A model generated the notes under the pieces. That model worked only from the letters and a program-made list of their open reading frames with translations, searched no databases and was not told the DNA's origin. Of a DNA stretch of 64,000 nt, positions 19,301 through 37,648 are shown piece after piece (the stretch's first letter is position 1; the number at the start of each line of letters is the position of its first letter). Source of the stretch: Bacteroidota bacterium (GTDB taxonomy: Bacteria; Bacteroidota; Ignavibacteria; Ignavibacteriales; Ignavibacteriaceae); assembly GCA_021777835.1 (NCBI GenBank), contig JAJYDC010000002.1, positions 132,088-196,087 on the forward strand. The letters run 5' to 3'. Position numbers and translations under genes: made by a program.

Positions 19301-19574
19301 TTTAATTCCCACTGAAACAAAGCTTATGCAGAATTATCCTAATCCATTCAATCCAAGTACTGTAATTACATTTCAGCTTAACAAAAGCTCAAATATTAGC
19401 CTAAGCATATATAATATGCTTGGTCAAAAGATCGCTAATTTAGCTAAAGGCTATTTCACTTCGGGAAGTCATTCACTTAATTGGAATGCAATCAATTTTG
19501 CCAGCGGGATTTATTATTATGAACTAAGAACAGACTCACAAAGATTTATAAAGAAAATGATACTAATAAAATAG
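16371..19574 (+). CDS. Large T9SS-exported multidomain protein: toroid domain, two Ig/PKD-like domains, LamG, sorting domain
   Basis: 1067 residues with an N-terminal signal segment (helix at about 10-23). Residues ~30-540 are a tryptophan-rich helical region (DDWWYETMPNVFFYQLYSLYP, PHEPEAAGAIAWLLYNAY, FATGDAESGGWGLTNLSLYSSSHVG) that looks like an (alpha/alpha) barrel catalytic domain of unknown family. Two tandem Ig/PKD-like domains follow (about 575-665 and 665-755), then a LamG/concanavalin-type domain (about 760-965: YYPLDGNANDESGNNNNG, YYFDGKTEYI, NFNGTLDDIRIFDYALS). The last ~85 residues are a T9SS sorting domain (QNYPNPFNPST, YNMLGQKIA, KKMILIK). It is probably the secreted glycan-attacking enzyme of the locus; activity is inferred from context. 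Confidence 0.83.
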   Translation: MKNQLKYRLVRIIFLSIIIFLIMNRNEFPQQINITQIDSMPNLPTPYLMRDWKKVAQGYDSLVFNLNTSGQYLPLVWTDNNATNYTGPRFGLHTVVGTTAPTSAEAINCIPALVGASLVGIDKSNQNGYNWVEMAQEWFNKTNGQNVYKNQPNDLTNDDWWYETMPNVFFYQLYSLYPNVGDFHNQFISVADQWLKAVYAMGGSTTPWQIPNMDHRGWDFPTMTPTDATPHEPEAAGAIAWLLYNAYVKTGNEKYRAGAELSMEFLNNWNSNPAYEIQLPYGVYTAARMNAELGTNYDIVKLVNWCFNITQLRDWGVMSNASYANYANWGGLDCDGLVGEINYSNNYAFVMNGFEQVGALVPMVRYDPRFAIAIGKWVLNVANASRLFYPKYLPAANQDAASKSWADQYDPNSYIAHEAMHQYSPNSNSISPFATGDAESGGWGLTNLSLYSSSHVGILGGIIDTTNVEGILQLNLLKTDYFHDTAYPTYLYYNPYPINKPVTINVGSSSVDIYDLVSKTFIVKGVTGSTNITIPANSAVIAVLAPAGGAQTYNLKKFLINGVVVDYQSNNSVANYPPRIKSLAPLPATILISDTVKMYCTAVDPDNDSMLYTWKTSLGSIIGTGNQVSWVAPDSAGNYVVSCKVSDSYGLIDSASDTLSVVKSIYHLPVINSITASPRKINIDSTSVFKCFASDSSNYNLTYSWYSPNGNISGSGSSVVWTAPHAAGNYYVYCTVNDGHGGIVADSLDVEVRDLSVIQSGNLMAYYPLDGNANDESGNNNNGTIQGAVSTSDRFGNLNRAYYFDGKTEYILVPSSPSLNFQNAITINFWMKVATFNGNEQYVISQGSYDNRLKISIIPGNYLRWTIKTNYTKNNGIIDLDSETKLAAGKWYNVNVIYSGSDYEIYLNGNLDSFSSWSGSILQTNIGMTFGQMTPTDNTYNFNGTLDDIRIFDYALSLQQISNLYNLNTTGIGTNSDLIPTETKLMQNYPNPFNPSTVITFQLNKSSNISLSIYNMLGQKIANLAKGYFTSGSHSLNWNAINFASGIYYYELRTDSQRFIKKMILIK

Positions 19575-19582
19575 GAGACAAT

Positions 19583-22045
19583 TTGAAGAAAAAATATTTA
19601 TTGCATGATAATTGGAAATTTTCGTTAAAGAAAACACAAGAGAAGGTTCCCTCTGAACTAAAAAGTAAAATAAAAGAAGGCAAATGGTTTAATGCAACCG
19701 TACCCGGTACTGTGCAAACTGATTTGCTTAATAATAAATTAATCCCTGAGCCATTTTACTCTGATAATGAAACAAAGCTTCAATGGATAGGTAAACAAAA
19801 TTGGACTTATAAGACTTCATTTGATCTTCCGGCCGATTATGATTTATCAAAAAAGCTATTTATAGTAATGGAAGGAATAGATACATCAGCAATAGTAATA
19901 TTAAACGGTACCATGCTGGGTCCTACGGAAAATATGTTTCTCACATATAAGTTTGAAATATCAAAACTCATAATACAAAAGAATAATGAACTTGAAATTA
20001 TTTTTATATCGCCGGAAATTTATGCAAAACAGCTTGAATCTAAATACGGCCAACTCCCGGTAGCATTGAGATCGGAAAGAGTCTATTTACGCAAAGCACA
20101 ATATTCATTCGGGTGGGACTGGGGACCGACATTCTTAACTCAAGGCATCTGGAGACCAATTTATTTACTACAAGCAGAGGAATATTGTTTCGAAAACTTT
20201 TCATTTAGTACTATCTCTATCAATGAACAAAATTTAAAAGCTAAAGTAAGTATTAAAGCTAAAATTAATAAGACGATAACTTCAAGCTTGAAACTGGGCA
20301 TTAAAATATGGGACGGAAATTCAGTCTATGAATATACTGAAGCTATTTCGGAGACAGGCGTTTTCAGTAAGGAATATGAGCTTGACGATGTGAAATTATG
20401 GTGGCCTAACGGATCAGGAGATTCTCATCTTTATAATATACAAATTAAGCTTACAGATGATGGCGTCATTTATGATGAAATAAACAAAAGAGTTGGAATA
20501 AGAACAGTAGAGCTAATCTTGAAAGAAAAAGAAGCAAATACTTTCCGGTTTCAAGTAAATGGGCATCCGGTTTTTGCAAAAGGGGCTAATTGGATTCCCG
20601 GAGATTCATTCCTACCGCGCGTAACTTCAGAAAAATATGAAAAATTACTAAGTCTTGCTAAAGACGGGAACATGAATATTATACGTGTTTGGGGAGGTGG
20701 AATTTATGAAAACGATATGTTTTATGACATATGCGATGAACTTGGTTTAATGGTATGGCAGGATTTTATGTTTGCATGTGCGGCTTATCCTGAGTACAAA
20801 GAATTCTTAGAAAACGTTTCAGAAGAAATAAAGCAAAATGTTTACCGCCTTAAGAATCATTCGAGTATAATTATCTGGTGCGGTAATAATGAGAATGAAT
20901 GGATATGGCAAAGAGCATTTAACAAATCATATAAAGAGATGCCGGGCTATAAAATTTATAATGAAGTTATTCCTAATATTTTAAAGGAAGCTGATCCGGG
21001 ACGGCCTTATTGGGAATCAACTCCATTCGGATATGATGAAGACCCAAATTCTGAAAACAGCGGGAATAGACATCAATGGGATTTGTGGAGTAACTGGATT
21101 GATTACAATGAAGTCGAAAAAGACAAAAGTTTATTTGTAACAGAATTTGGATTTCAAGCGCCGGCAAACGCTGAAACTATTGTAAATGTCCTGCCAAAGG
21201 ATGAAAGATATCCTCAAAGTAAAATATTTGATTTTCATAACAAGCAGGTAGAGGGACCTCAAAGATTAATTAAATTCCTTTCATCGCACCTACCTTTAAC
21301 AAACAGGCTAGTTGATTTTATTTATTTAACTCAGTTAAATCAGGGTTTTGCACTTAAGAAATGCGTAGAACATTGGCAGTCAAGATTTCCAGAAACAAAC
21401 GGTTCAATTATATGGCAAATAAATGATGTGTGGCCTGTGTCGAGCTGGTCATTGATTGATTCAAACTTAATTCCAAAATTGGCATATTATTTTGTTAAAC
21501 AAGCTTTTAGTCCTCAAATAATCCAATTTGAGAGAAAAGAGAAAAATGTTTATGTGAGTATCCAAAATAATTCAAATGAAAAATACTCGGGGAAGGCAAG
21601 AATTCAAATCATTAGTCTTCCTAAAGGTAAAGTTAATAACGCAGTATCAAAAAAAGTAATAATTGAGCCGCTGGAGAAGCGCGCAATTATTTCAGTCCAA
21701 GTGCCAAACAGTAGTAATAGTGAAAAGCATGTAGTAATTGTGTCGCTCTTAAACTCTGATGGGACAATAGCTCAACAGAATTATTTTGTAGAAGATGAAT
21801 GGAAGCATCTTCGACTTCCGAAAGCAAAAGTTAAATACAAATTCGCCGGAAAGGATTCTATAGTGATAAAAACAGATAAACCTGCATTTTTCGTTTCACT
21901 TGAAAGTCCGGGAATTATTTTTAGTCACAACGGTTTTATCCTCCTTCCCGGGGAAGAAATCAAGGTAAATATAGTTAAGAATTCTATACATATTAAGAAT
22001 CCGAAGTCAATCAAAGTATCTTGTTTAAATGAACATTTATTATAA
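19583..22045 (+). CDS. GH2 beta-mannosidase
   Basis: 820 residues, no signal peptide, so cytosolic. It removes terminal non-reducing beta-D-mannose. Domains in order: GH2 sugar-binding jelly roll (about 1-200; TVPGTVQTDLL, GWDWGPTFLTQGIWRPI is a beta-mannosidase hallmark), Ig-like domain (200-310), TIM barrel (315-660) and C-terminal beta domains. The acid/base is Glu437 in WCGNNENEW and the likely nucleophile is Glu521 in FVTEFGFQ. The start is TTG at 19583 with AGGAGA overlapping the previous stop codon, 5 bases away; MKKKYLLHDNWKFSL is the usual family beginning. It firmly ties the locus to mannosides. Confidence 0.95.
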   Translation: MKKKYLLHDNWKFSLKKTQEKVPSELKSKIKEGKWFNATVPGTVQTDLLNNKLIPEPFYSDNETKLQWIGKQNWTYKTSFDLPADYDLSKKLFIVMEGIDTSAIVILNGTMLGPTENMFLTYKFEISKLIIQKNNELEIIFISPEIYAKQLESKYGQLPVALRSERVYLRKAQYSFGWDWGPTFLTQGIWRPIYLLQAEEYCFENFSFSTISINEQNLKAKVSIKAKINKTITSSLKLGIKIWDGNSVYEYTEAISETGVFSKEYELDDVKLWWPNGSGDSHLYNIQIKLTDDGVIYDEINKRVGIRTVELILKEKEANTFRFQVNGHPVFAKGANWIPGDSFLPRVTSEKYEKLLSLAKDGNMNIIRVWGGGIYENDMFYDICDELGLMVWQDFMFACAAYPEYKEFLENVSEEIKQNVYRLKNHSSIIIWCGNNENEWIWQRAFNKSYKEMPGYKIYNEVIPNILKEADPGRPYWESTPFGYDEDPNSENSGNRHQWDLWSNWIDYNEVEKDKSLFVTEFGFQAPANAETIVNVLPKDERYPQSKIFDFHNKQVEGPQRLIKFLSSHLPLTNRLVDFIYLTQLNQGFALKKCVEHWQSRFPETNGSIIWQINDVWPVSSWSLIDSNLIPKLAYYFVKQAFSPQIIQFERKEKNVYVSIQNNSNEKYSGKARIQIISLPKGKVNNAVSKKVIIEPLEKRAIISVQVPNSSNSEKHVVIVSLLNSDGTIAQQNYFVEDEWKHLRLPKAKVKYKFAGKDSIVIKTDKPAFFVSLESPGIIFSHNGFILLPGEEIKVNIVKNSIHIKNPKSIKVSCLNEHLL

Positions 22046-24703: not shown

Positions 24704-25810
24704 ATGGCAAGAGTACAATTAAAAGATATTTCGAAGTCTTATGAAAACGGCAGTTATGCAGTAAAGGATATAAACTTTGAAGTAGAAGACAAGGAATTTG
24801 TAGTTCTTGTAGGTCCCTCGGGTTGCGGGAAATCTACAATTCTGAGAATGATAGCAGGATTAGAAGAAATAAGTTCGGGAGAATTATTTATTGAAGATAA
24901 AAAAGTAAATGAAATATCACCGAAGGACAGAAACATAGCAATGGTCTTTCAGAACTATGCACTTTATCCTCACATGACGGTTTATGAGAATATGGCTTTT
25001 GGTCTTAAGTTAAGGAAATTCAGCAAAGAAGAGACAAAGAAGCGAGTTACGGAAGCGGCAAAAATACTAGAACTTGAGCCATATTTACAAAGAAAGCCGA
25101 AGGCACTGTCAGGAGGGCAAAGACAGCGAGTAGCTGTCGGCAGAGCAATAGTAAGAAAGCCTAAGGTGTTCTTATTTGATGAGCCGTTGAGTAACCTGGA
25201 CGCAAAAATGAGGGTGCAAATGCGTACGGAGATATCCAGACTTCATAAGCAGCTTGAAGCGACTATGATATATGTAACTCATGATCAAACTGAAGCAATG
25301 ACAATGGGTAACAAAATAGTTGTTCTCAAGGATGGTATAATAAACCAAATATCAACGCCGCTTGACTTATATAATTTCCCAGCGAATAAATTTGTAGCAG
25401 GATTTATCGGAAGTCCTGCAATGAATTTTCTAAGAGGCAAAATTGTTGAAGATAATGGTCTGAAATTTAGGAGTGAGAAAAGTACATTAAGTATAGGCAT
25501 ACCAGCAAATCAAATTAAAAAGTTAAATACTTATTTGAACAAGGACGTTTATCTTGGGATACGTCCTGAAGATATATATGATGAAACAAATTACCAGCAA
25601 ATTTCAGCATATGAAGAACTGAAAGTAGAACTTGATTTGGTAGAGCCAATGGGAAATGAAATTTATTTATACTTCCTGATAGAAGGTGTGCAGTTTATAG
25701 GCAGAATTCCGGCGCGAGTAATACCAAAGCAGGGAAGTACAAAAAATCTTTTCTTCGACGTGTCAAAAGTTCATTTCTTTGACGATAAAACCGAAGCAGC
25801 TATAAGATAA
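24704..25810 (+). CDS. MalK/UgpC-type sugar ABC transporter ATPase
   Basis: 368 residues. Walker [10 protein letters not shown] (about 38-46), Q-loop [12 protein letters not shown], signature [15 protein letters not shown], Walker [13 protein letters not shown] and H-loop [11 protein letters not shown] are intact. The C-terminal ~130 residues are the TOBE/regulatory domain ([23 protein letters not shown]), typical of CUT1 sugar importers. It is the missing ATPase of the importer encoded at 9626-12607, separated from it by the enzyme genes but on the same strand with gaps of at most about 60 bases throughout. A ribosome site TAGGAA precedes the ATG. Such ATPases can serve several CUT1 systems. 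Confidence 0.96.
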
Positions 25811-25869: not shown

Positions 25870-26769
25870 TTAGAATTTAAAGCTAAGCGATACTGTATTG
25901 CCTGTACCTAAGCCATATTGAAATGGTGTAAAGGCATAATCAAAGTCTAGATTTCCCCACATTATACCTAATCCAGCCGTAAAACTTTTCGATATGTAAT
26001 TAGATTGATAGCCTCCCCGAAGAGCAATCATATTATCATAAGTTATTTCTGCGCCAAGATTGAAATGAGAATCATTAGTCGGAGTATATTTTAGGAATTC
26101 GGCTGCGATATCAACTGCAATTTTGTTTCCAGGAAGCTGAAACTGATAATTTGGACCAATTCTTATTTCAGTTGGTAATTTCGTATCTTGATTTCTTAGT
26201 TGATTCATTGAACCAAGATTTCTGACAACCGCAACAGCTCTTAGACCATCTATAGGGGTTTTATAATTTAATCCGAAGTCAAATCCCCATCCTGTAGCCT
26301 CATCAACGTATAAACCTTCATACAGATATTTTATAGTAGCTCCGAATGAAATATTATCAACGACATGAAACCCAGTACTAATACTGCCGAAGAAATATTC
26401 AGCATTAAATGAAGCAATTGGTTCGGTAGTAGGCTGAGTTCTTATAGGGATATCATTTATTGAGGTTACGTTTATTCCAAGGGCAAAAGGTACACCATAA
26501 ATATCTGTTTTAGCTCCTAGAACTTCACTTCGGACGCCCTGAATCCACTCATTGTGCATTAGCATAATCTGATTACCGGAAGATTCACTTAAATTAGCGG
26601 GGTTATAGAAAAGAGAAGTTACGTCTTTAGACGCGGCAGCTCCTGCGTCACCCATAGCCATATTTCTTGCACCAAAGCCAAGCTTAAGAAATGAAAGTCC
26701 GCTGTTACCTGCCGACTGTGCTAATAATGAAGTTGAAGCAATAATTATAATTAAAAGTATCTTTCGCAT
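25870..26769 (-). CDS. PorV/UPF0164-family outer-membrane protein
   Basis: 299 residues with a signal peptide (about 1-18). The mature protein opens with the PorV hallmark: GNSGLSFLKLGFGARNMAMGDAGAAASKDVTSLFYNPANL, followed by MLMHNEWIQGVRSE and a barrel ending in FKF. It is the last gene of a four-gene minus-strand unit (lipoprotein, T9SS cargo, PorV-like, PorV-like) and lies 35 bases from the next PorV-like gene. Family members carry or anchor T9SS cargo; this one probably serves the Asp-box cargo encoded in the same unit. Confidence 0.85.
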   Translation of the reverse strand: MRKILLIIIIASTSLLAQSAGNSGLSFLKLGFGARNMAMGDAGAAASKDVTSLFYNPANLSESSGNQIMLMHNEWIQGVRSEVLGAKTDIYGVPFALGINVTSINDIPIRTQPTTEPIASFNAEYFFGSISTGFHVVDNISFGATIKYLYEGLYVDEATGWGFDFGLNYKTPIDGLRAVAVVRNLGSMNQLRNQDTKLPTEIRIGPNYQFQLPGNKIAVDIAAEFLKYTPTNDSHFNLGAEITYDNMIALRGGYQSNYISKSFTAGLGIMWGNLDFDYAFTPFQYGLGTGNTVSLSFKF

Positions 26770-26804: not shown

Positions 26805-27800
26805 CTAAAAATTGATATTTAATCCGATTACATTTTCGTTAGACGGAGAATATTGTTCGATCACAAACGCATAATCGACTCCTACAGTAATATTCCCGAA
26901 ATTCTTAAAGTATGAAAATCCAAGCGAAGGCTTAGCCGGGAAATCAGAATTACTTAAGTTAAATTGATCTAATCCGCCGCGCAAATATAATCCTTTGTAA
27001 ATATTGTACTCAATTCCTCCTCTTAGAATATTTGTGCCGGCGTTGCTGCTCTCAAATTCTAACGCAGCAATAATCCCATAATCTTTATTTGAATAACTAA
27101 CACCGACTTTTTTTAGTAGAGGGAATTTATCAACTGAATTAGTTCCGTTTTGCTGATAAATAGGAGTGCTGTCCCAGGTATATTTGCTGTTTAAGTCTGT
27201 AAGCATAAAAGAGATATTCCATTGGTCGTTAACTCTGTAAAGAGCTCCTATGTCAAGTCCAAAGCCTGTAGATGAAATTTGCTGATAAAGTTTGTAATAG
27301 TAGAATTTGAAGGACATGCCTAATGAAAATTTCTTAGAGAACCTATTAGCGAGAGCGATGAAAAATTGATTTTCACTTGTTGACAAATTGCCGGTTTGGA
27401 TTCCTTGAGCATCTCTGCCATCAATTTGGCTAACTCCTGAGTTTATAACCCCAAGACTTATTCCTGCGCTTGATCTAACGATTTTATTTCCCAACGAATC
27501 CGTTGAATAGAAATCAAATTTTCTTGTAAAGTTCAAGAAGTTTAGTGACCTATTAAGTGAAAGAAAAGAGTATGAAGTTTGGAAAGAATTATTTTCCTGA
27601 AATACCGTTAAAGCCGGGTTATAATATGAAACTATATTTCCTTCAGTTACTGCCGACATTGCATTACCCATACCAATGCCACGTGCTCCAAAGCCCATCC
27701 TGCTAAATGCTCCGGGCATTGTGCTTATGGGGCTAACCTTGGCTTGAGCAATTATAACGCCTACAGAAAAAAGTAAAATAAGTGAAAGTATTTTTTTCAA
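26805..27800 (-). CDS. PorV/UPF0164-family outer-membrane protein, divergent paralogue
   Basis: 331 residues; signal peptide about 1-20 (ending AQAKV). Its N-terminal motif MPGAFSRMGFGARGIGMGNAMSAVTEGNIVSYYNPAL is a recognisable PorV/UPF0164 signature, but the SRMGFGARGIGMG variant and the absence of the WNPAG form set it apart from its neighbour. The remaining sequence is amphipathic barrel text ending in NINF. It starts 8 bases after the T9SS cargo gene, with which it is surely co-transcribed. Confidence 0.8.
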   Translation of the reverse strand: MKKILSLILLFSVGVIIAQAKVSPISTMPGAFSRMGFGARGIGMGNAMSAVTEGNIVSYYNPALTVFQENNSFQTSYSFLSLNRSLNFLNFTRKFDFYSTDSLGNKIVRSSAGISLGVINSGVSQIDGRDAQGIQTGNLSTSENQFFIALANRFSKKFSLGMSFKFYYYKLYQQISSTGFGLDIGALYRVNDQWNISFMLTDLNSKYTWDSTPIYQQNGTNSVDKFPLLKKVGVSYSNKDYGIIAALEFESSNAGTNILRGGIEYNIYKGLYLRGGLDQFNLSNSDFPAKPSLGFSYFKNFGNITVGVDYAFVIEQYSPSNENVIGLNINF

Positions 27801-27808
27801 TGGGTCCT

Positions 27809-29395
27809 CTATTGAACGACTAAAATTTTTCCATAAACAGGGGCATTAGACCCTGCGTCAACGCGGTAAAAATAAACTCCATTAGGGACTATATTACCGT
27901 TAGCGTCTTTGCCATCCCAGTAGTCTATTACACCGTTTGTATTATCAACCAGGTGGGTTGGATTTCCCCGCTGTGCATTTTCAATAACTGTCCTAACCAA
28001 ATTCATGCTGAAGTTAAAAATTCGTATAGTCACCGGAACGCTCTGACCTCCTGTACTGTATTTAATCTTCAATACATCAGTTCTTGGGTCAAACGGGTTT
28101 GGGAAAGCGTATGATTGTGATACTGAAGCAACCGGTTGAGATGCATAAAAAACTTTCCATGTACCAGACCACATATTAGTGCTCGAATTTTCGTCAATTC
28201 TTGCTAAGCCATCAGATGTTCCCACCCAAACACTGTTGCCCTGGAAAGCAGCAGAATAGACCGCAGGACTCGTCAATGATATATTTGTCGATGCATCTAT
28301 TATAGAATTGGGTAATACCCAATTTATGCCATTATCTTTTGTTCTGAATGCTCCGTCATCAGTGCACGAAATAACCTGTCCGCCATCACCAAAAGCAAAG
28401 TTATGAGCTTTTTCTCCGCTTAATGATGTCTTCCAATTTAGTCCGCCGTCGGAAGAATAACTGACGCCATAAAATTCTGTAGAACCGTCAGCTTGCCAAG
28501 TAGCGCCCCATAATGTGCTGTCAATTTGATTATATCCCAATGCAGTAACAAAATTTCCGCTGATAGGATTATTTTCATTTGTGTGAGTAAACTTTACCCA
28601 GCTTATACCTCCGTCTGTTGATTTATTTATCCCATCTGCTGTTCCAACATAAAGGGTAGAATCATTTACCGAAATGACAGAGAATACTCTATAGTTCAAA
28701 TTATCGCCAGAGCAAAAATTCCCTGAGACAGGCTGTAAGCAGAAATTTAGGGTATCTGTAGGTTTAATTGAATCGAGGTTATCAGGTGGCAACACTACTC
28801 TTTGCCAGGTTTTACCCATATCTGTGCTTTTTCTTAAACCTCCAGCAAAAGTTGCAATCCAAATTGTGCCTGGAGTAAACGCAATATCATAAACTATATT
28901 TTGGACATCAACTGTTACCGGAAGAGCACGCAAATTATTTATACCGTATGTTACGACCGAGTCACTCTCTTTATCAACTGGCTGTGGTATTGAGTTCCAT
29001 GTCTTACCTTCATCGGTAGTGTACTTTAATCCACTGCCGGTAGGAAGTTCTTGACCATTATCAGTTGTAGTGTGTGCGGTAGCTGCCCAAAATATTCCGT
29101 TGTTGTATCCAATAGCAGAAATACTTTCTGATCCGAAAGCGGGTGTTCCTCCAAAGTTAGTCCAATTAGTTCCTCCATCAGTTGATACACTAACTCCGTT
29201 GTCAGTACCAAGCCAAACGGTATCGCCTCTAATAATCATATCGCTGATGCTATTATTTGACGGAGTTCCGTTCGCTTCAGTTTTCCCCATTTTTCTATCT
29301 TGAGTCATAATAAATGAATGAGGAGCGAATTGAGAAAAAGACTCTTTTATAAATAATAATGAAAGAAGAATCGCTATTAGAATTTTTAATTTCAT
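27809..29395 (-). CDS. T9SS-exported Asp-box (sialidase/YCF48-like) beta-propeller protein
   Basis: 528 residues, signal peptide about 1-21 (ESFSQ). Six Asp-box motifs (S/T-x-D-x-G-x-x-W) are visible at about 71-78 (STDGGTNW), 126-133, 190-197, 259-266 (STDGGISW), 314-321 and 352-359, indicating a six- or seven-bladed propeller over residues ~45-400. Catalytic residues of sialidases are not recognised, so it is probably a structural or binding propeller. The last ~95 residues form a FlgD/T9SS-like sorting domain (AFPNPFDPRTD, IRIFNFSMNLVRTV, GVYFYRVDAG). It overlaps the upstream lipoprotein gene by 4 bases (ATGA), so the two are translationally coupled. Confidence 0.88.
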   Translation of the reverse strand: MKLKILIAILLSLLFIKESFSQFAPHSFIMTQDRKMGKTEANGTPSNNSISDMIIRGDTVWLGTDNGVSVSTDGGTNWTNFGGTPAFGSESISAIGYNNGIFWAATAHTTTDNGQELPTGSGLKYTTDEGKTWNSIPQPVDKESDSVVTYGINNLRALPVTVDVQNIVYDIAFTPGTIWIATFAGGLRKSTDMGKTWQRVVLPPDNLDSIKPTDTLNFCLQPVSGNFCSGDNLNYRVFSVISVNDSTLYVGTADGINKSTDGGISWVKFTHTNENNPISGNFVTALGYNQIDSTLWGATWQADGSTEFYGVSYSSDGGLNWKTSLSGEKAHNFAFGDGGQVISCTDDGAFRTKDNGINWVLPNSIIDASTNISLTSPAVYSAAFQGNSVWVGTSDGLARIDENSSTNMWSGTWKVFYASQPVASVSQSYAFPNPFDPRTDVLKIKYSTGGQSVPVTIRIFNFSMNLVRTVIENAQRGNPTHLVDNTNGVIDYWDGKDANGNIVPNGVYFYRVDAGSNAPVYGKILVVQ

Positions 29396-30174
29396 TGTAT
29401 AACAACGTTATGAATAATTTTATTGCTCAACTTACCGCCAAAGTTTTTTGCTTGAAATTCAAACCGATAAGTTCCCTTAGTAACTCCTTGAGGAGGAAGA
29501 ATTATATACGAAGAATATATTCCGTCCCCGGCTAATTTATCACCATATGTCCCATCATCATGCAAAGGAATAGGGTTTTGCGAAGATGCATGTCCGTCAG
29601 GAGGAATAAATGAATTAAAGAATACAGATGCTACATCCCATAATCCAACGCTATCTTGCACTTGAACCGAGACAAAAAGCGTATCGCTTTGAGTTCCTAT
29701 TTTTGCTGAGTCGGGGCAAATTAAATTAGATATTACCGGAGCAGGATTATTTTGTCCGTTACTGTATTGTAATGAATGCATCGAAACAGTTTCAGTATTA
29801 CCATTTATATCGGTTACATAAAATTTAATTTGATACGTGCCGGATGGATAGTACTTGCTCATTGGGAAGGATACACTATAAGTATTGAATCCGGAATCGG
29901 TAAGTACCTTAACTTCATTCAAAACAATTGGAGATCCATTTATTGTTGAATTATCAGGCCCGATTATATCACAGGAAACTGAATTAATATCAGAAGCTTT
30001 CTTTAACGTTATCCCTATATTTATAAGAGAGTCCGAAGGTGAATATGAAAAAGTTTCTCCGGTACTTATACTAATAACTTGATAAGCAACTGGTTCGGGG
30101 TCTATTATAGTATTGTAATCTTTTTGGCATCCCCAAAAGATCAAAGGTAAAAAAAACAAAATATATTTTTTCAT
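29392..30174 (-). CDS. Lipoprotein with Ig-like and DDG-type domains
   Basis: The start is taken at ATG 30174, since it gives a clean lipoprotein signal (MKKYILFFLPLIFWGC, Cys16); an in-frame TTG at 30210 would push the lipobox inside. The 260-residue product has two beta-sandwich-like halves. The second contains the acidic motif DDGTYGDKLAGDGIYSS, as in choice-of-anchor-X-like/bacterial Ig domains, and PQGVTKGTYRFEFQAKN. It is the first gene of the four-gene PorV/T9SS unit and shares ATGA with the Asp-box cargo gene. I infer a surface lipoprotein working with that cargo; the role is unknown. Confidence 0.8.
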   Translation of the reverse strand: MKKYILFFLPLIFWGCQKDYNTIIDPEPVAYQVISISTGETFSYSPSDSLINIGITLKKASDINSVSCDIIGPDNSTINGSPIVLNEVKVLTDSGFNTYSVSFPMSKYYPSGTYQIKFYVTDINGNTETVSMHSLQYSNGQNNPAPVISNLICPDSAKIGTQSDTLFVSVQVQDSVGLWDVASVFFNSFIPPDGHASSQNPIPLHDDGTYGDKLAGDGIYSSYIILPPQGVTKGTYRFEFQAKNFGGKLSNKIIHNVVIQ

Positions 30175-30255
30175 TAATTGAAATATTGTTGTATAAAAGT
30201 ACTTGCTCAAGGTAAAAAAAATTATACTTTCAAATCTTCATTACTTTGATATAAA

Positions 30256-31269
30256 TCATTTAGGTATCACAATCGCAAATGGTGTTGCTGAAAACGAAAT
30301 AATCAATATAAAAAAGCTTAGATATCCAAGGAATTTTCTTTTTGTATCAAGTTCTTCATCGTCCTGAATAGGCGGATGTTTAAGCTTTATAACTAATAAT
30401 AGAACGAGAGCCCATAAAAGCCAGCCAACCCATCCAGTGGAATAGTTTAAATCAAACAATCCTTCTAATAAGCCCATCAATCCTAGCGCAGCTAATATTA
30501 CAAATGATATTAATGCAATATTAAAATGTTTTTTCTCTCCAAACATTGTATACGCTATATGTCCGCCGTCAAGCTGTCCTACAGGAATCATGTTCATAGA
30601 AGTTATGAACAAGCCAAACCATCCTACGCATAAATAAGGGTAGTGATAAATTTCAGACATAGGTGGGAAGAATTTACTGCCGTGTATGAAAATTAATTTG
30701 AACAATGAAAATAGAATTGTGTTGCCGAAAATTAAATCTAATCCGTTCTTGCTGTAATTAGGAGAAAAATAATCGGGATGTATTGCTAGTAAATAGTCTA
30801 TTCCCGGTACGTGTGTAAAACCGTAAACAAGCACAATTAAGCAGGCTACAAAACCTGCTAATGGTCCAGCAATTCCTATATCAAACATTGCCTTTTTTGA
30901 AGGTACAACTGATTTGGTTTTTATAACTGCACCCATAGTCCCGAAATTTAGGAAAATAGGGACTGGAGGGAATGGAATATAATATGGAAGCGTTGCCTTC
31001 ACTTTGTGAAATACTGAAGCAAAATAATGTCCGAATTCATGGCAGGAAATAATAAACATAATTGAAAATGAGTAGGGGAGTCCTTTTAGTATAAAAGATA
31101 TTTGGTATGGACCGGGCTGCCCGCTTATCCATTGCGCGCCTGCAAACGTAGTAGTAATAAAGGTAATTATAAATAATCCTATGTGCAGGCTATAATTTTC
31201 CTTATTATCACGGTGTTTCTTAAAAACATCATCTCCATCCTCGATTATATTCTGGTAGTTGTCTGGCAT
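30256..31269 (-). CDS. Site-2-protease family (M50) membrane metalloprotease
   Basis: 337 residues with about six to eight membrane segments. The zinc site HEFGH (77-81) lies in a membrane helix, and the third ligand region GQLDGGH (231-237) matches the family's NxxPxxxLDGGH motif (here NMIPVGQLDGGHIAY). IAGPLAGF (133-140) is the usual GPLA turn. No PDZ domain is seen, so it belongs to the short, PDZ-less S2P group like plant EGY/cyanobacterial homologues. It would cleave a membrane-protein substrate inside the bilayer. It is the last gene of a six-gene run, 2 bases after the DUF1207-like gene; the link to polysaccharide genes is unexplained. Confidence 0.9.
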   Translation of the reverse strand: MPDNYQNIIEDGDDVFKKHRDNKENYSLHIGLFIITFITTTFAGAQWISGQPGPYQISFILKGLPYSFSIMFIISCHEFGHYFASVFHKVKATLPYYIPFPPVPIFLNFGTMGAVIKTKSVVPSKKAMFDIGIAGPLAGFVACLIVLVYGFTHVPGIDYLLAIHPDYFSPNYSKNGLDLIFGNTILFSLFKLIFIHGSKFFPPMSEIYHYPYLCVGWFGLFITSMNMIPVGQLDGGHIAYTMFGEKKHFNIALISFVILAALGLMGLLEGLFDLNYSTGWVGWLLWALVLLLVIKLKHPPIQDDEELDTKRKFLGYLSFFILIISFSATPFAIVIPK

Positions 31270-31271
31270 GA

Positions 31272-32102
31272 TTATAAGTCGAAACTAAATCCAAATGATG
31301 CATAGTTTTCATTCAAATCGTAATAAAGTCCGTGGATGCTTTTCCCGGAAGTATACGAGACTAGAATTCGAAAACCTTTACCGTTGTATTTTCCAAATTT
31401 AATTCCCGCTTCAATTATATTATTACCCGTATAATTCCCAATTTGACTTAGCTTAAAGTCATCTGCAAGAAAGGGAGTTACGTTCTTTCCGGCTAGGTTA
31501 ACAAGATAATAATCGAATCCTGCTTGATAGATACCTCTTCCGATCGTAGTAGGGATCCGATGGAATAAATATGTAAAGCCTCCGTAAATACGAAATTCAT
31601 TTATTTTATAATAAGGCAGGACCTCAATAAATTCTCTGCTATATACAAATGGTACCCTGCCGTTGCGCCAGACAGAGTTTTGTTCGTCATAGCTTCCGTC
31701 TACCAAGTGTGCACTGATATGGCTTAAGCGAATACGGAACCCGTATTCATAATTTCCCTCAATAACCTTATACCCAGAATTGATGCCAAAGAAATAATCA
31801 ATTGTTTCTACTGGGAAGCGAAAATTATTTTCATTTCTTAACCTGGTAAATGTAAATAAATCAGCTCCGAATGAAAGAGTTGAATTCCCATTATGTACTT
31901 GATATACATCTGAAGAAATACCTGCATCAAGTTTTAATCTTCTCTCCCCAAATAGATAGGAAGAGCCGTCTCTTGCTTCAAGTATATTCGCAGTGAAGGG
32001 CTGTATATTTAATTTATTTGGGAACCATGATTCTGTTGACTGTGAATAAGATAATTTAGGTATTATCGCTAGTAGTATTAAAATAATTGAGCATTTCCGC
32101 AT
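31272..32102 (-). CDS. DUF1207-like outer-membrane beta-barrel protein
   Basis: 276 residues, signal peptide about 1-20. The text is barrel-like throughout and contains ESWFPNKLNIQPFTANILEAR near the start and RIRLSHISAHLVDGSYD in the middle, matching the DUF1207 pattern as I recall it (family members carry an RLxHxSxHLGD motif); it ends in Phe-Asp-Leu. No function is known for the family. The start codon directly abuts the stop of the radical-SAM gene with no spacer, so expression is coupled. An exporter or surface barrel for the product of the preceding biosynthetic genes is possible but unproven. Confidence 0.65.
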   Translation of the reverse strand: MRKCSIILILLAIIPKLSYSQSTESWFPNKLNIQPFTANILEARDGSSYLFGERRLKLDAGISSDVYQVHNGNSTLSFGADLFTFTRLRNENNFRFPVETIDYFFGINSGYKVIEGNYEYGFRIRLSHISAHLVDGSYDEQNSVWRNGRVPFVYSREFIEVLPYYKINEFRIYGGFTYLFHRIPTTIGRGIYQAGFDYYLVNLAGKNVTPFLADDFKLSQIGNYTGNNIIEAGIKFGKYNGKGFRILVSYTSGKSIHGLYYDLNENYASFGFSFDL

Positions 32103-33098
32103 TTAGATATTTTCCGCTTTTTTGGATATTCTTTTATTTATTTTTTGTTTGATAAGCTTATTGTAGCCATACTTAAATTTAGATGTAAGGCTAATGAATG
32201 AGTAATAATTAGTAGGGAAAGCAAATGAAGGCTCAAAGTAACAATTTACTGTGCAGCCCTGACAAAACTCAAATCTGCCTTCCATTTTTTTATAGTGTTT
32301 TAGCTTTTCGGTTTCCCTAATCTCTTTTATAGGTCTATCAATCAAGACTCTTTCATTTTCAAAATGATAGCAGGGGAGTATAATTTCATTATTTGGAGAA
32401 ATTACTACTACACGGGATACTGCCTTACATCTTGGATCGTTAATGTTATTCCCACCGTCCCGTCTTAGCTTTATGAATCCTTTATTCATATAGACATCGA
32501 TCTTACCGTTAATATAATTCTCAACGTAATCCATAGCTTCATTTGATAGCCCGGGGTTCCCGAAATAAGAGAATACTGGATTGACAATTAAGAGCAGTCC
32601 GTATTTTGATGCAATCTCATGCATACGCGGAAGTTTTTTGTAAGTGTCGTTAGTTACTGTAAATAAAATATCGGGATATTCACCTAATGATTTAGCAATC
32701 TCAATACTCTTCAATACGCTCCCGTAGCAATTCACTTTCCTTATTTTGTTATGCTCTTCTTCGTCAGGCGAGTCTAAAGAAAAATGAAGCAGATTGATTT
32801 TACCGGCTAATTTGTCTGCGAATTTAGGATATAACAAACCGTTTGTAGTTATGCTAGTCTGCATCTTTAATCCTTTTGCAAACTCAGCCATTAGATGAAT
32901 CTCCTTATGCAGAAGAGGCTCTCCTCCGGTTAAATCAATAAACTTTACTCCAAGGTCAGCAAGCTGCTGAACATTGGATTTGAAATCCTCAAGCTTTGCG
33001 AACGGTGTATCTTTGAAATTCTCATGAACACCAAAATGACAGAATTCGCAAAAGGCATTACATCGATATGTTAAATAATAATTGCACAGTAATATCAT
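32103..33098 (-). CDS. Radical SAM protein with C-terminal Cys-rich (SPASM-like) region
   Basis: 331 residues. The [4Fe-4S]-binding CxxxCxxC motif is C13-C17-C20 (YRCNAFCEFCHF), followed by the SAM-binding LTGGEPLLH (57-64). Additional cysteines in the last third (DPRC, ILPCYHF, FCQGCTVNCYFEP) would hold an auxiliary cluster, as in SPASM/twitch proteins. It ends in a basic tail (KLIKQKINKRISKKAEN). The substrate is not evident. Its stop abuts the DUF1207-like gene and its start overlaps the GT2 gene by 4 bases, so it is part of the polysaccharide-type unit; modification of a lipid, sugar or peptide of that pathway is inferred. Confidence 0.88.
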   Translation of the reverse strand: MILLCNYYLTYRCNAFCEFCHFGVHENFKDTPFAKLEDFKSNVQQLADLGVKFIDLTGGEPLLHKEIHLMAEFAKGLKMQTSITTNGLLYPKFADKLAGKINLLHFSLDSPDEEEHNKIRKVNCYGSVLKSIEIAKSLGEYPDILFTVTNDTYKKLPRMHEIASKYGLLLIVNPVFSYFGNPGLSNEAMDYVENYINGKIDVYMNKGFIKLRRDGGNNINDPRCKAVSRVVVISPNNEIILPCYHFENERVLIDRPIKEIRETEKLKHYKKMEGRFEFCQGCTVNCYFEPSFAFPTNYYSFISLTSKFKYGYNKLIKQKINKRISKKAENI

Positions 33099-34189
33099 GA
33101 ATATTCTCTTTCCTTCCAGACAACTTTTCGGCTAATTGCAATAACAAATGGGATTAGAACAACGTAAATAATATAATATAATTGAAAGTTGAAAAAATAT
33201 TTTAGGTTCCTTTGAATACCTAAGGCTTTATGGACCGGATACAATAGCAAATAGTCAACGGTTATTTTGAAGACTGCCAAATATAGCCATACGGGAGAGA
33301 AAAATAAAGGAGTAAGCAATAAACCTAAGTTTGCTAAAAATCCCAATGCCATTATTGGGTATCCTCTGAGAGGTACAGCAAGTCCTCCGACAGACCACCG
33401 TTTTTTCTGTTTATACAATTCTTTCAAATTTCTGCACGGCTGAGATATTATTAAAGCATTCTTATCAAGGGGAAAAATTAATTTGTACTTATTCAATTTA
33501 TAGATTGCCTGAAGTAAATTGAAATCCTCAGTAACGCTGAAAGGAAGGCTTTCGTATCCGCCTGCCTCAAGATAGGCACTTTTCCTGTATGACATATTAT
33601 TGCCAATACAGCTTATAGGTTTGTTAATATTGATTGTACCTGAAGCCGCAATTAAAAGATAAACGAAGTCTATTGCCTGCATTCCGCTAAAGCCGCCAAA
33701 TGCTGATTGAGTAGTAAATCCATTTACAATAGCCACATCATTTTGATAATAGGAAGCAATTGTTGTCGCCCATTGCGGGCTTACTTCGCAATCTGCATCC
33801 GTAGTTAAAATTATTTCTCCTTTAGCAATATCTATTCCGTTTGCTAAGGCGTTGGTTTTACCTTTTAATCTTCCTATCTCTTTTTTTGCTTCTATTTTCT
33901 TAAACTTAGGCTTTCCTGATATGTATGTCTCGATCAATTCTCCGGTTGAATCGATTGATTTATCATCGACAATAATGATCTCCAATTTATCTTCTGGGTA
34001 TTTAAGATTATCTAACGACTTCAAGCAACGTAATATGTTTGCTTCCTCATTTCGGGCTGCTACTATTATAGTTGCCGAGGGGAGTTGGTTCGCATTTAGT
34101 TGAGGAAATCTTTTCTTTATGCCTATAACAAAGAGAATAGACTGAATGAAATATCCGCATAGGGCTATTAGAAAAATTACCTCAGGCAT
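33095..34189 (-). CDS. Membrane glycosyltransferase family 2, processive type
   Basis: 364 residues. One N-terminal membrane helix (about 4-24), a GT-A domain (about 38-270) and two to four C-terminal helices. Motifs: ATIIVAARNEEANI (nucleotide binding), VDD (74-76), DAD (131-133, metal binding), TED (220-222, catalytic base) and QKKRW (261-265), the QxxRW signature of processive enzymes such as PNAG, cellulose and hyaluronan synthases. It overlaps the CE4 deacetylase gene by 13 bases, an arrangement reminiscent of IcaA/IcaB or PgaC/PgaB pairs, so a deacetylated amino-sugar polymer or glycolipid is a reasonable inference. Confidence 0.9.
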   Translation of the reverse strand: MPEVIFLIALCGYFIQSILFVIGIKKRFPQLNANQLPSATIIVAARNEEANILRCLKSLDNLKYPEDKLEIIIVDDKSIDSTGELIETYISGKPKFKKIEAKKEIGRLKGKTNALANGIDIAKGEIILTTDADCEVSPQWATTIASYYQNDVAIVNGFTTQSAFGGFSGMQAIDFVYLLIAASGTININKPISCIGNNMSYRKSAYLEAGGYESLPFSVTEDFNLLQAIYKLNKYKLIFPLDKNALIISQPCRNLKELYKQKKRWSVGGLAVPLRGYPIMALGFLANLGLLLTPLFFSPVWLYLAVFKITVDYLLLYPVHKALGIQRNLKYFFNFQLYYIIYVVLIPFVIAISRKVVWKEREYS

Positions 34190-34827
34190 TCGGCTGGTTT
34201 CCCTATCTCAAATCCTTTTTTGTTTACTTCTTCCATTATCAAGTTTATTGAATCTACAATAATGTTTTTAGATTTTCTGCTATCGTGAAGGACAATAATT
34301 GAATTACTATTTAAGTATTTTCTAATGGCAAAATTAACAATATTTAAGTCATTAGTGTAATCATAAGAAAGTAATGACCACATTACATTTATTATTTTCT
34401 TTTCTGCTAGAATTTTTTGTGTATGGAAATTAAATCTTCCGTGAGGTGGTCTAAAATATTTTACTGTGTAGTTATGATTATCCTCAAGCAAGCGGTTGAA
34501 TAGATCAATCTGATTATTGAACTCAGTATTGTCTAAGCGGGTAATAACTTCGTGATTATAGGTATGATTGCCTATCTCATGCCCTTCGCTAAGAATTTCT
34601 TTAATTAGACCAGGATTGTGTTTCGCATTTTCGCCTACGCAGAAGAATACAGATTTAACATTTAAGTCATTTAACCTCTTTAAGATCATTTGTGTGGTCT
34701 CAGATGTTGGTCCATCATCAAATGTGAGTAGAATCTTAGACTGACTGCTTTCCCAGATAAAATCTTTGAAAAGAAGCTTAATTAAAAGCGGAGGATTATA
34801 TAAATATTTTAATTGTAAAGACTTCAC
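34177..34827 (-). CDS. Polysaccharide deacetylase (CE4, NodB homology)
   Basis: 216 residues, almost only the NodB domain. The catalytic motifs are complete: TFDDGP (35-40, base and metal Asp), HTYNH (88-92, two metal His), RPPHGR (126-131) and the closing IVLHDS (178-183, catalytic His). It removes N- or O-acetyl groups from sugar polymers or lipid-linked sugars. Unlike most CE4 enzymes it has no signal peptide, only a hydrophobic NPPLLIKLLFKDFIW stretch, so it may act at the inner face on a lipid-linked precursor. The start overlaps the TPR gene's stop by 4 bases; the end overlaps the GT2 gene. Confidence 0.92.
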   Translation of the reverse strand: MKSLQLKYLYNPPLLIKLLFKDFIWESSQSKILLTFDDGPTSETTQMILKRLNDLNVKSVFFCVGENAKHNPGLIKEILSEGHEIGNHTYNHEVITRLDNTEFNNQIDLFNRLLEDNHNYTVKYFRPPHGRFNFHTQKILAEKKIINVMWSLLSYDYTNDLNIVNFAIRKYLNSNSIIVLHDSRKSKNIIVDSINLIMEEVNKKGFEIGKPAECLR

Positions 34828-35831
34828 TTTTTAATCTTCCCCATATTAGTCGTCGGCTTTGCCTGCGACTTAATATGCTTTTTACCCAAAGGTTTATGAA
34901 GTTTTGACTTAGCTGTTTCCTTGCAGTATTTCTCAATTGCAGCATAGGCATCGAAGTATCCCATATTACCAGCTTGCTTAAAGTCGGGGCATGCTTCTTG
35001 CTTCTTACCTATTTCAATATTAGTAATACCGCGTTTAAAGTAAGCTTTTGCTTCATCAGGGTACAATGAGATTATCTTTGAGAAATCATCTATAGCTTTG
35101 TTGGGTTTATTTATAACTCTATAAGCGTCACCTCTAAAATAATATGCATCTTTATTAGCCGGATCAATTTGCAACACCTTTGTAAAGTCCTCAATTGCAT
35201 AATCAAAGTTCCCTAAGACAGCTAAATCGAATCCACGAATTAAATATGCGCTCTTATCATTAGGATTAAGTTCTATTGCCTGACTATAATCGTCAATAGC
35301 GCCGGGATAGTCTTGAAGCTCGCCCTTCACGTTGCCGCGATTTACATATGCTTCCTCATTATCCGGTTTTAGATTAATAGATTTGTTATAATCATTTAGT
35401 GCAGATTTATAATCTTGGTTTTTAGACTCGATATAAGCCCGGCTGAAATATGAGAGGTAGTTGCTCGAGTCTAATTCTATTGCTTTATTAAAATCAGATC
35501 CTGCTTTTATATACTCGTCAAGGTTGATATATTCAATTCCGCGATTTAGATACGATAATGCATTACTATCATTAAGCGATATGGCTTTTGAATATGCTTC
35601 GATTGCTTGTTTGTGTTTTGCTAATGAACCATAAGCTTTGCCTAGAATAAAATATAACTTAAAGTCATTTGGGCTCTTGTTTATTGCAAGCCGAAACTTA
35701 TCAATCGCAGTATTGAAATTCCCTGATTGGTAATCTTTCTCACCGAGAATATAGTATTCATTCGCCGGCGAACAGCCTTCAATTATAGAAATCAATGCGA
35801 TAATTGAAAGAATATAAAATATCTTTTTCAT
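34824..35831 (-). CDS. TPR-repeat lipoprotein
   Basis: 335 residues; lipoprotein signal with lipobox IEGC (Cys20). Eight tetratricopeptide repeats of 34 residues run from about 25 to 297, with very regular AYxxRGxxx...A(I/L)xDYxxAIxLxPxN text, followed by a basic Lys-rich tail. TPR lipoproteins are scaffolds for envelope complexes; PgaA and AlgK-like proteins use TPRs in exopolysaccharide export, which would fit the CE4/GT2 genes immediately downstream. It is the first gene of the six-gene unit and overlaps the deacetylase gene by 4 bases (ATGA). Confidence 0.9.
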   Translation of the reverse strand: MKKIFYILSIIALISIIEGCSPANEYYILGEKDYQSGNFNTAIDKFRLAINKSPNDFKLYFILGKAYGSLAKHKQAIEAYSKAISLNDSNALSYLNRGIEYINLDEYIKAGSDFNKAIELDSSNYLSYFSRAYIESKNQDYKSALNDYNKSINLKPDNEEAYVNRGNVKGELQDYPGAIDDYSQAIELNPNDKSAYLIRGFDLAVLGNFDYAIEDFTKVLQIDPANKDAYYFRGDAYRVINKPNKAIDDFSKIISLYPDEAKAYFKRGITNIEIGKKQEACPDFKQAGNMGYFDAYAAIEKYCKETAKSKLHKPLGKKHIKSQAKPTTNMGKIKK

Positions 35832-37255: not shown

Positions 37256-37648
37256 ACAATATTGTGTAAAAGTATTGTCCAACAATTTGTTAATTACTTA
37301 TTGTAGAAATAAACTTTTATTTGAGGTTACTTCTGATCAACCCTATTCCATTTAATCCATATCCCAACATTTGATTTTAGTGGCGCGTTTAATTTAATAT
37401 ATTTTTTGGAAATAAAAAGCTTTTGATGATTGATTTAGGAGAAACCCTTAAAAACTCTTCACGGATGATTTGACAGACGAAAAGGATATTGCATAATAGA
37501 GAAAATGAATTTCATAATTATCTAATTTGTTTATTCCATGCACTAAGAGTAATAAAAAACTCCGTGCAACCGACACGGAGTTCCTCTTTCCCTTCAACAT
37601 ATGACCTTGGTCGTACGTTTTTGGAATATTTATTATAATAGCAAGAAT
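37256..37648. other. Intergenic stretch with one terminator
   Basis: 393 bases between two minus-strand genes. It holds the terminator of the TonB receptor gene near its right end and, by position, the promoter of the MFS gene. No RNA gene or credible short ORF was seen in the rest. Confidence 0.6.
37549..37585 (-). terminator. Intrinsic terminator of the second TonB receptor gene
   Basis: Perfect 9-bp arms AACTCCGTG (37558-37566) and CACGGAGTT (37574-37582) with a 7-base loop. Read on the minus strand the hairpin is followed by TTTTTATT. It lies about 65 bases past the stop of the 37649-40105 gene. Confidence 0.88.

What the first reader, a model, noticed from the sequence alone, without database searches (positions are those of the whole stretch)
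30256..35831. Tightly coupled six-gene envelope unit: TPR lipoprotein, CE4, GT2, radical SAM, DUF1207-like, S2P protease
Genes overlap by 4, 13 and 4 bases, then abut with 0 and 2 bases, so stoichiometric expression seems selected. TPR + deacetylase + processive GT2 resembles PNAG/alginate machines, but a radical SAM enzyme, an uncharacterised barrel and an intramembrane protease are unusual additions. The signal-less deacetylase hints at action on an inner-leaflet precursor. This may be an undescribed polysaccharide or glycolipid pathway with a built-in protease.
Basis: partly seen in the sequence, partly recalled or inferred. Interest (0 to 1): 0.62.

Follow-up and report, generated by a model that had tools for sequence, protein, structure and literature searches.

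The report
Conserved envelope-building gene cluster, Ignavibacteria
The tightly packed genes are real and belong to a larger gene cluster for building the cell surface, kept in the same order across a group of little-studied bacteria; its 'unknown barrel' looks like a lipid-cutting outer-membrane enzyme, but the molecule the cluster makes or remodels is still unknown.

Summary
The six genes and their overlaps (4, 13, 4) and gaps (0, 2) are real. Conservation changes the boundaries. The TPR gene is an add-on found in only 5 of about 50 loci, all close relatives. The other five genes continue without a strand change into four more: a lipoprotein, a beta-propeller with a T9SS-like tail (PorZ-like), and two PorV/PorQ-related barrels. 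The order CE4-GT2-rSAM-DUF1207-S2P-lipoprotein-propeller-PorV-PorV recurs in dozens of Ignavibacteria. Across 149 genomes of the class, GT2 (145) and S2P (143) are nearly universal; the radical SAM (26) is an optional insert. Elsewhere the cluster also carries a flippase-like gene and a second GT2, which this genome keeps on another contig. The DUF1207-like barrel (model pLDDT 95) matches outer-membrane phospholipase A best. It has an invariant His-x-Ser in lipid-facing register and a neighbouring Glu, so it is probably an outer-membrane acyl hydrolase. The best reading is an envelope cluster: GT2 plus cytosolic CE4 make an amino-sugar glycolipid or lipid-linked glycan, DUF1207 trims an outer-membrane lipid, and the PorV-like set handles a surface protein. 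The substrates of CE4, rSAM and S2P are not shown. It is not PNAG/alginate.

The parts
34824..35831 (-). TPR-repeat lipoprotein; lineage-specific add-on, not part of the conserved unit
   Evidence: Pfam TPR; signal with lipobox-like Cys (IEGC); upstream of CE4 in only 5 loci, always with a 4-base overlap
34177..34827 (-). CE4 polysaccharide deacetylase, no signal peptide or TM segment; CE4 motifs present
   Evidence: PF01522 8e-31; D37, D38, H88, H92, R126, H181 conserved in 51 homologues and no TM segment
33095..34189 (-). GT2 membrane glycosyltransferase with DAD, TED and QxxRW motifs, N-terminal and C-terminal TM segments
   Evidence: PF00535 6e-25, PF13506 GT21-like; HpnI and PgaC far below cut-off; motifs invariant; in 145/149 genomes
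32103..33098 (-). Radical SAM enzyme (CxxxCxxC) with C-terminal SPASM/twitch-like cysteines; optional insert between GT2 and DUF1207
   Evidence: PF04055 1e-22; 26/149 genomes; alignment; best fold matches BlsE Z 21.2 and SuiB Z 20.3
31272..32102 (-). DUF1207-like outer-membrane barrel; probable OMPLA-like acyl hydrolase with H128-x-S130 and E157
   Evidence: PF06727 1e-9; model pLDDT 95; OMPLA best, Z 19.2 against 16.0 for the next family; invariant H128, S130, H132, D135 in 43 sequences
30256..31269 (-). M50 site-2-type intramembrane protease, HExxH and LDG motifs intact
   Evidence: PF02163 7e-16; H77, E78, H81, D234 conserved; 143/149 genomes
29392..30210 (-). Lipoprotein with Ig-like and choice-of-anchor X segments (IgLP); conserved continuation of the unit
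   Evidence: NF041940 over cut-off; lipobox Cys conserved; same place in about 40 loci
27809..29395 (-). BNR beta-propeller protein with a T9SS-like C-terminal domain, PorZ-like
   Evidence: BNR; of 15 members, 14 match the PorU model (C-terminal part in the window's copy), 11 TIGR04183 and 4 the PorZ model at E<=0.1; 107/149 genomes
26805..27800 (-). PorV/PorQ-related outer-membrane barrel (PorV1), below the family cut-off
   Evidence: NF033709 66 bits, cut-off 90; conserved place
25870..26769 (-). PorV/PorQ-family outer-membrane barrel (PorV2)
   Evidence: NF033709 148.6 bits, cut-off 90; conserved place

Best explanation
This is one end of an old envelope-biogenesis cluster of Ignavibacteria. 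Shown: a nine-gene unit (CE4 to PorV2) conserved in order, built on a nearly class-wide set of GT2, S2P and often the DUF1207 barrel and propeller/PorV genes. Inferred mechanism: GT2 adds an N-acetylated sugar to a lipid carrier or lipid at the inner face of the inner membrane. The cytosolic CE4 removes the acetyl group, leaving a free amine, by analogy with other lipid-linked sugar deacetylases. In many lineages a second GT2 and a flippase-like protein (here on contig 95) extend and flip the product. The radical SAM enzyme makes an optional change to the sugar, lipid or a peptide. In the outer membrane the DUF1207 barrel hydrolyses an acyl ester with a lipid-facing Ser-His-(Glu) site. The lipoprotein, the propeller with its T9SS-like tail and two PorV-family barrels form the surface part that displays or anchors a protein on that envelope. 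S2P is probably a general regulatory protease encoded alongside, rather than a pathway enzyme.
For: Order and overlaps conserved in about 50 loci. Class-wide pairing within 6 kb: GT2 with DUF1207 in 61 genomes, GT2 with S2P in 66, S2P with propeller in 76, CE4 with GT2 in all 22 genomes counted as holding both. Flippase-like protein (TIGR00374) and second GT2 directly upstream of CE4-GT2 in 15 loci and in other families; the same pair sits on contig 95 of this genome. Glycan-type neighbours: FemAB-like in 24 loci, GT4, Wzx-like, heptosyltransferase-like, ArnT-like. Barrel: pLDDT 95; OMPLA ranks first, Z 19.2 over 210 residues, next family 16.0. H128/S130 share the register of hydrophobic positions 120-126 on a strand ending in the longest loop; invariant in 43 sequences; E157 93%. 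OMPLA's triad is His142-Ser144-Asn156 on the barrel exterior (PMC5043575). Propeller tail and PorV family.
Against: No sequence homology between the barrel and OMPLA could be detected, and beta-barrels give high fold scores easily; the triad and its orientation rest on a model and a periodicity argument, not on a measured site. The third member is Glu, not OMPLA's Asn. No substrate, product or transcript is known. DUF1207 occurs without GT2 or S2P beside it in green-sulfur-type genomes, so its work does not need this cluster. The genome has its own PorU-PorV pair 90 kb away, so the two PorV-like genes are paralogues whose role is open.
Confidence: 0.5

Rival explanations
1. The genes make an exported polysaccharide: GT2 is processive, CE4 deacetylates the polymer, TPR lipoprotein and barrel export it, as in PNAG or alginate systems.
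For: GT2 has the DAD, TED and QxxRW motifs of processive GT2 enzymes and hits PgaC at 1e-26; EPS-type genes (FemAB-like, Wzx-like, GT4) sit beside the cluster in several lineages.
Against: PgaC score is 94 bits against a cut-off of 422; CE4 has no signal peptide, so it cannot reach an exported polymer; the TPR gene is missing in nearly all relatives; the barrel resembles OMPLA rather than a polysaccharide porin, with a conserved His-Ser in lipid-facing register.
Confidence: 0.2
2. The conserved order reflects frozen ancestral neighbourhood and shared regulation of several unrelated envelope genes, with no common pathway.
For: The set breaks in blocks: family f3 keeps GT2-CE4-DUF1207 about 35 kb from S2P-IgLP-propeller-PorV; no DUF1207-GT2 pair was found in f9 and no propeller pair in f11; the rSAM gene lies elsewhere in f3.
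Against: Overlapping stop-start junctions such as the 13-base CE4/GT2 overlap are kept across dozens of loci; CE4 is beside GT2 wherever both were found.
Confidence: 0.2
3. The radical SAM enzyme and S2P process a peptide or protein substrate, such as the lipoprotein or propeller protein, so the cluster makes a modified surface peptide.
For: rSAM has SPASM/twitch-like cysteines and its fold matches the peptide maturases SuiB and SkfB nearly as well as BlsE; M50 proteases can act on small membrane peptides (own knowledge).
Against: The core genes abut or overlap, leaving no room for a small precursor gene between CE4 and S2P; the cluster runs without rSAM in 13 of 14 f2 genomes; the sugar-acting BlsE is the top match in both sequence and fold.
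Confidence: 0.1

Closest known systems
OMPLA (PldA, outer-membrane phospholipase A)
   Same: Barrel fold is the best structural match; His-x-Ser in lipid-facing register near the end of a strand leading to the longest loop, followed by a polar residue on the next strand
   Different: No detectable sequence similarity; Glu in place of Asn; calcium site and dimerisation untested; PF02253 not found in the 61 genomes searched
PagL/LpxR lipid A deacylases
   Same: Outer-membrane acyl hydrolases; PagL uses His-Ser-Glu (own knowledge)
   Different: LpxR ranks lower (TM 0.39); PagL has fewer strands (own knowledge); no sequence link
ArnC-ArnD-ArnT lipid A aminosugar pathway and HpnI-HpnK hopanoid glucosamine pathway
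   Same: A GT2 followed by a cytosolic deacetylase acting on a lipid-linked sugar (own knowledge); an ArnT-like gene sits beside S2P in family f11
   Different: GT2 is far below the HpnI cut-off; HpnK is not CE4; no ArnT-like gene in the window's cluster
PNAG (PgaABCD) and alginate machines
   Same: TPR, deacetylase and GT2 with related folds
   Different: Deacetylase is cytosolic, TPR not conserved, no PgaA/PgaB-type partner
T9SS attachment complex (PorU, PorV, PorQ, PorZ) of Porphyromonas gingivalis
   Same: Propeller with T9SS-like tail next to two PorV/PorQ-related barrels; PorZ binds A-LPS (PMC8545088)
   Different: Shorter protein with one propeller, against two in PorZ; true PorU-PorV pair lies elsewhere in the genome; PorV1 below family cut-off

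Membership tests
OMPLA / PLA1 family (PF02253) | Sequence match to the family model | tested here: not met
   No PF02253 hit in 61 genomes including this one; hhalign with E. coli PldA aligns only 41 C-terminal columns, probability 0.6%
OMPLA / PLA1 family (PF02253) | Barrel fold of OMPLA type | tested here: met
   OMPLA entries fill ranks 1-6, Z 18-19, about 210 residues, rmsd 3.1-3.4; Foldseek TM about 0.55; predicted model only
OMPLA / PLA1 family (PF02253) | His-x-Ser plus Asn on the barrel exterior | tested here: inconclusive
   H128-x-S130 invariant and in lipid-facing register; next-strand residue is E157, not Asn; no coordinates inspected
OMPLA / PLA1 family (PF02253) | Phospholipase activity, Ca-dependent dimer | not testable with these tools
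   needs a protein assay
PNAG synthase machine (PgaABCD) | GT2 is PgaC equivalog | tested here: not met
   TIGR03937 94 bits, cut-off 422
PNAG synthase machine (PgaABCD) | Exported deacetylase PgaB and TPR porin PgaA | tested here: not met
   CE4 has no hydrophobic N-terminal segment; TPR protein 28 bits against a PgaA cut-off of 367
HpnI/HpnH hopanoid enzymes | GT2 and rSAM reach equivalog cut-offs | tested here: not met
   HpnI 54/310 bits, HpnH 41.6/225 bits
PorV/PorQ family (NF033709) | Score over the curated cut-off | tested here: met
   PorV2 148.6 bits against 90; PorV1 only 66
T9SS cargo (TIGR04183 C-terminal domain) | Score over the cut-off of 23 | tested here: inconclusive
   Window protein 16.1 bits; 11 of 15 family members match at E<=0.1, best 9.7e-6
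M50 site-2 protease | HExxH and LDG motifs in membrane protein | tested here: met
   PF02163 58.6 bits over 27.2; motifs conserved in 47 homologues
CE4 deacetylase | Metal-binding D-H-H and catalytic motifs | tested here: met
   PF01522 107 bits over 23.1; residues conserved in 51 sequences

The most novel reading that the evidence does not exclude
Ignavibacteria use a dedicated cluster to make an amino-sugar glycolipid, trim it in the outer membrane with a new family of OMPLA-like hydrolases without sequence similarity to OMPLA (the DUF1207-like barrels), and use it to hold a T9SS-type propeller protein through two PorV-family barrels: a T9SS anchoring route different from A-LPS in Porphyromonas.
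Probability: 0.12. Interest if true: 0.75.

Novelty: new variant of a known kind. Interest (0 to 1): 0.45.

Why it matters
It gives a barrel family of unknown function, present in about 70% of this class and in green-sulfur-type genomes, a testable enzymatic role with named residues. It also defines an envelope gene set for bacteria known mostly from metagenomes, and puts a glycolipid-type pathway beside T9SS-type surface genes, where the anchoring lipid outside Porphyromonas is an open question.

Tried and rejected
PNAG/alginate machine: rejected (cut-offs, cytosolic CE4, TPR not conserved). Hopanoid glucosamine pathway: considered because GT2 hits HpnI over its full length and squalene/hopanoid-like genes (named by inspection) lie about 15 kb away in one relative (L099), rejected on scores. 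Bacillithiol link: a 541-aa neighbour is BshC, but BshC is nearly universal (140/149), lies on the opposite strand, and is on another contig here; genes of similar length in L147 and L149 turned out to be CehA/McbA-type hydrolases. Bona fide T9SS attachment complex: the true PorU-PorV pair lies 90 kb away. Sequence route from DUF1207 to PDB structures gave only repeat-protein noise. The rSAM fold search did not separate sugar-acting from peptide-acting enzymes. The CE4 count of 23/149 is a lower bound: a profile finds a diverged CE4 beside GT2 in f3. Full-text searches found no paper naming DUF1207 and none on this cluster; the library is open-access only.
Full report
What is there. The window lies in a 3.6-Mb draft genome whose relatives are named Ignavibacteria. 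The six genes, their order and their overlaps are as described, and each family name holds. The catalytic residues of CE4 (TFDDGP, NHTYNH, RPPHG, LHD), GT2 (DAD, TED, QxxRW), radical SAM (CNAFCEFC plus C-terminal cysteines) and S2P (HEFGH, LDGGH) are intact and conserved among homologues. No terminator-like site was found between S2P and the next gene, and four more genes follow on the same strand: a lipoprotein (IgLP), a BNR propeller with a T9SS-like tail, and two PorV/PorQ-related barrels.

Boundaries. I fetched 49 loci by the radical SAM protein and stretches from further genomes. CE4-GT2-rSAM-DUF1207-S2P-IgLP-BNR-PorV1-PorV2 recurs in that order in essentially every Ignavibacteria locus long enough to show it, with an extra ORF in a few. 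The TPR gene appears in only five loci, all close relatives. Elsewhere its place is taken by archease/RtcB-type genes (named by inspection) or others. In 15 loci from the more distant lineages the genes upstream of CE4 are a TIGR00374 flippase-like protein and a second GT2, in five of them with a second radical SAM. Junctions are conserved in detail: the 13-base CE4/GT2 overlap in most of 52 loci, and a 4-base or 1-base IgLP/BNR overlap in nearly all of 43. Core pairs have a gap of 2 or less in 66% of cases against 33% of other same-strand pairs in the same loci, with the same crude gene caller.

Depth. Across 149 genomes sampled from the class, GT2 is found in 145, S2P in 143, BNR in 107, DUF1207 in 104, radical SAM in 26 and CE4 in 23, the last a lower bound because a profile finds a diverged CE4 next to GT2 in family f3. 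Best hits lie within 6 kb of each other in 61 genomes for DUF1207/GT2, 66 for S2P/GT2 and 76 for S2P/BNR; CE4 is beside GT2 in all 22 genomes counted as holding both. So the radical SAM is an optional insert, and S2P is an old, almost universal member rather than an unusual addition. The set breaks in blocks: f3 has GT2-CE4-DUF1207 about 35 kb from S2P-IgLP-BNR-PorV; f9 has GT2-S2P-IgLP-BNR-PorV-PorV; f4 and f18 have flippase-GT2-CE4-GT2 with a CehA-type hydrolase; f11 has GT2 and S2P followed by an ArnT-like gene. In this genome the flippase-GT2 pair sits on contig 95 beside bshC and, on the other strand, genes that look like a DegT-type aminotransferase and heptosyltransferases (the last two names are by inspection).

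The barrel. The DUF1207-like protein has 21 invariant columns among 43 diverse sequences, including R123, R125, H128, S130, H132, D135, G136 and W145. I proposed from the R-x-R-x-S-H-x-S motif that it would resemble outer-membrane lipases before searching (note). The AlphaFold2 model has mean pLDDT 95, and the second-look alignment puts OMPLA entries at ranks 1 to 6 (Z 18.2-19.2), above KdgM (16.0) and autotransporter-type barrels (about 15 and below). Foldseek by E-value ranks many barrels together, OMPLA having the highest TM-scores (0.54-0.56). In strand 118-133 the positions 120, 122, 124 and 126 are hydrophobic and 123, 125 and 127 polar, which puts H128, S130 and H132 in the lipid-facing register, close to the longest (presumably extracellular) loop 134-153. 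E157 (93%) is on the next strand in the register of hydrophobic 159 and 161. OMPLA's His142-Ser144-Asn156 lies on the barrel exterior (PMC5043575). There is no detectable sequence similarity to PldA, and PF02253 was not found in 61 genomes of the class, so I claim 'works like', not membership. The fold match is a model result, and a shared fold does not show function.

Other parts. The radical SAM model (pLDDT 80) matches BlsE, a cytosylglucuronate decarboxylase (Z 21.2), and peptide maturases such as SuiB (20.3) about equally, so its substrate is open. The propeller family matches the PorU model in 14 of 15 members (for the window's copy over its C-terminal part), TIGR04183 in 11 and the PorZ model in 4, all at E up to 0.1. 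PorV2 is over the PorV/PorQ cut-off, PorV1 is not. The genome has a full PorU beside a strong PorV on the same contig, and eight PorV/PorQ-family genes over cut-off, so the two here are paralogues. In P. gingivalis PorZ binds A-LPS and works with PorU, PorV and PorQ (PMC8545088), and loss of PorV/LptO alters lipid A dephosphorylation rather than deacylation in one study (PMC5424252). Coupling of T9SS parts and envelope lipid is therefore known elsewhere.

Mechanism proposed. Shown: gene set, order, conservation, catalytic residues, predicted folds. Inferred: GT2 puts an N-acetylated sugar on a lipid. CE4, being cytosolic, deacetylates it before export, as ArnD does for a formylated lipid-linked sugar (own knowledge). 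The flippase and second GT2 complete it where present. The DUF1207 barrel removes an acyl chain in the outer membrane. The lipoprotein, propeller and PorV-like barrels are the surface component. S2P is most simply a regulatory protease.

Verdict. A real, conserved and, as far as the open-access library shows, undescribed cluster built from known families, with one new functional lead (the DUF1207-like barrel as an outer-membrane hydrolase). No product or phenotype is known, so interest is moderate.

Noticed in passing
L151 8107-12282 (contig 95 of the window's genome): bshC on one strand and flippase-like plus second GT2 on the other. In relatives the same flippase-GT2 pair sits directly upstream of CE4, and bshC lies within 10 kb of GT2 in 21 genomes (read). 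Whether bacillithiol-type chemistry is linked to this cluster is open.
   Followed up: partly
L139 8073-9017, L141 8459-9412: DUF1207-like barrels occur in many genomes of a small-genome family (f30, green-sulfur type judged by size only) without GT2 or S2P beside them, once next to aspartate carbamoyltransferase.
   Followed up: partly
L082 1829-5544, L150 5255-6136: Second, diverged DUF1207-like copy upstream of the flippase-GT2-CE4 genes in several f2 genomes, in L082 followed by a subtilisin-like protein with a T9SS tail.
   Followed up: no
window 37554-37586, minus strand: Strong terminator-like hairpin (14 pairs, T run) between the 818-aa TonB-receptor-like gene and the MFS transporter gene.
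   Followed up: no
window 16371-22045 and 24704-25810, plus strand: Glycoside-hydrolase-like and T9SS-tailed proteins and a MalK/UgpC-type ABC ATPase on the other strand beside PorV2; a similar ABC ATPase gene is also found near the cluster in L064.
   Followed up: no
L146 5405-7015: ArnT-like lipid A aminosugar transferase directly after S2P in family f11, a hint that the GT2 product may be transferred to lipid A.
   Followed up: partly
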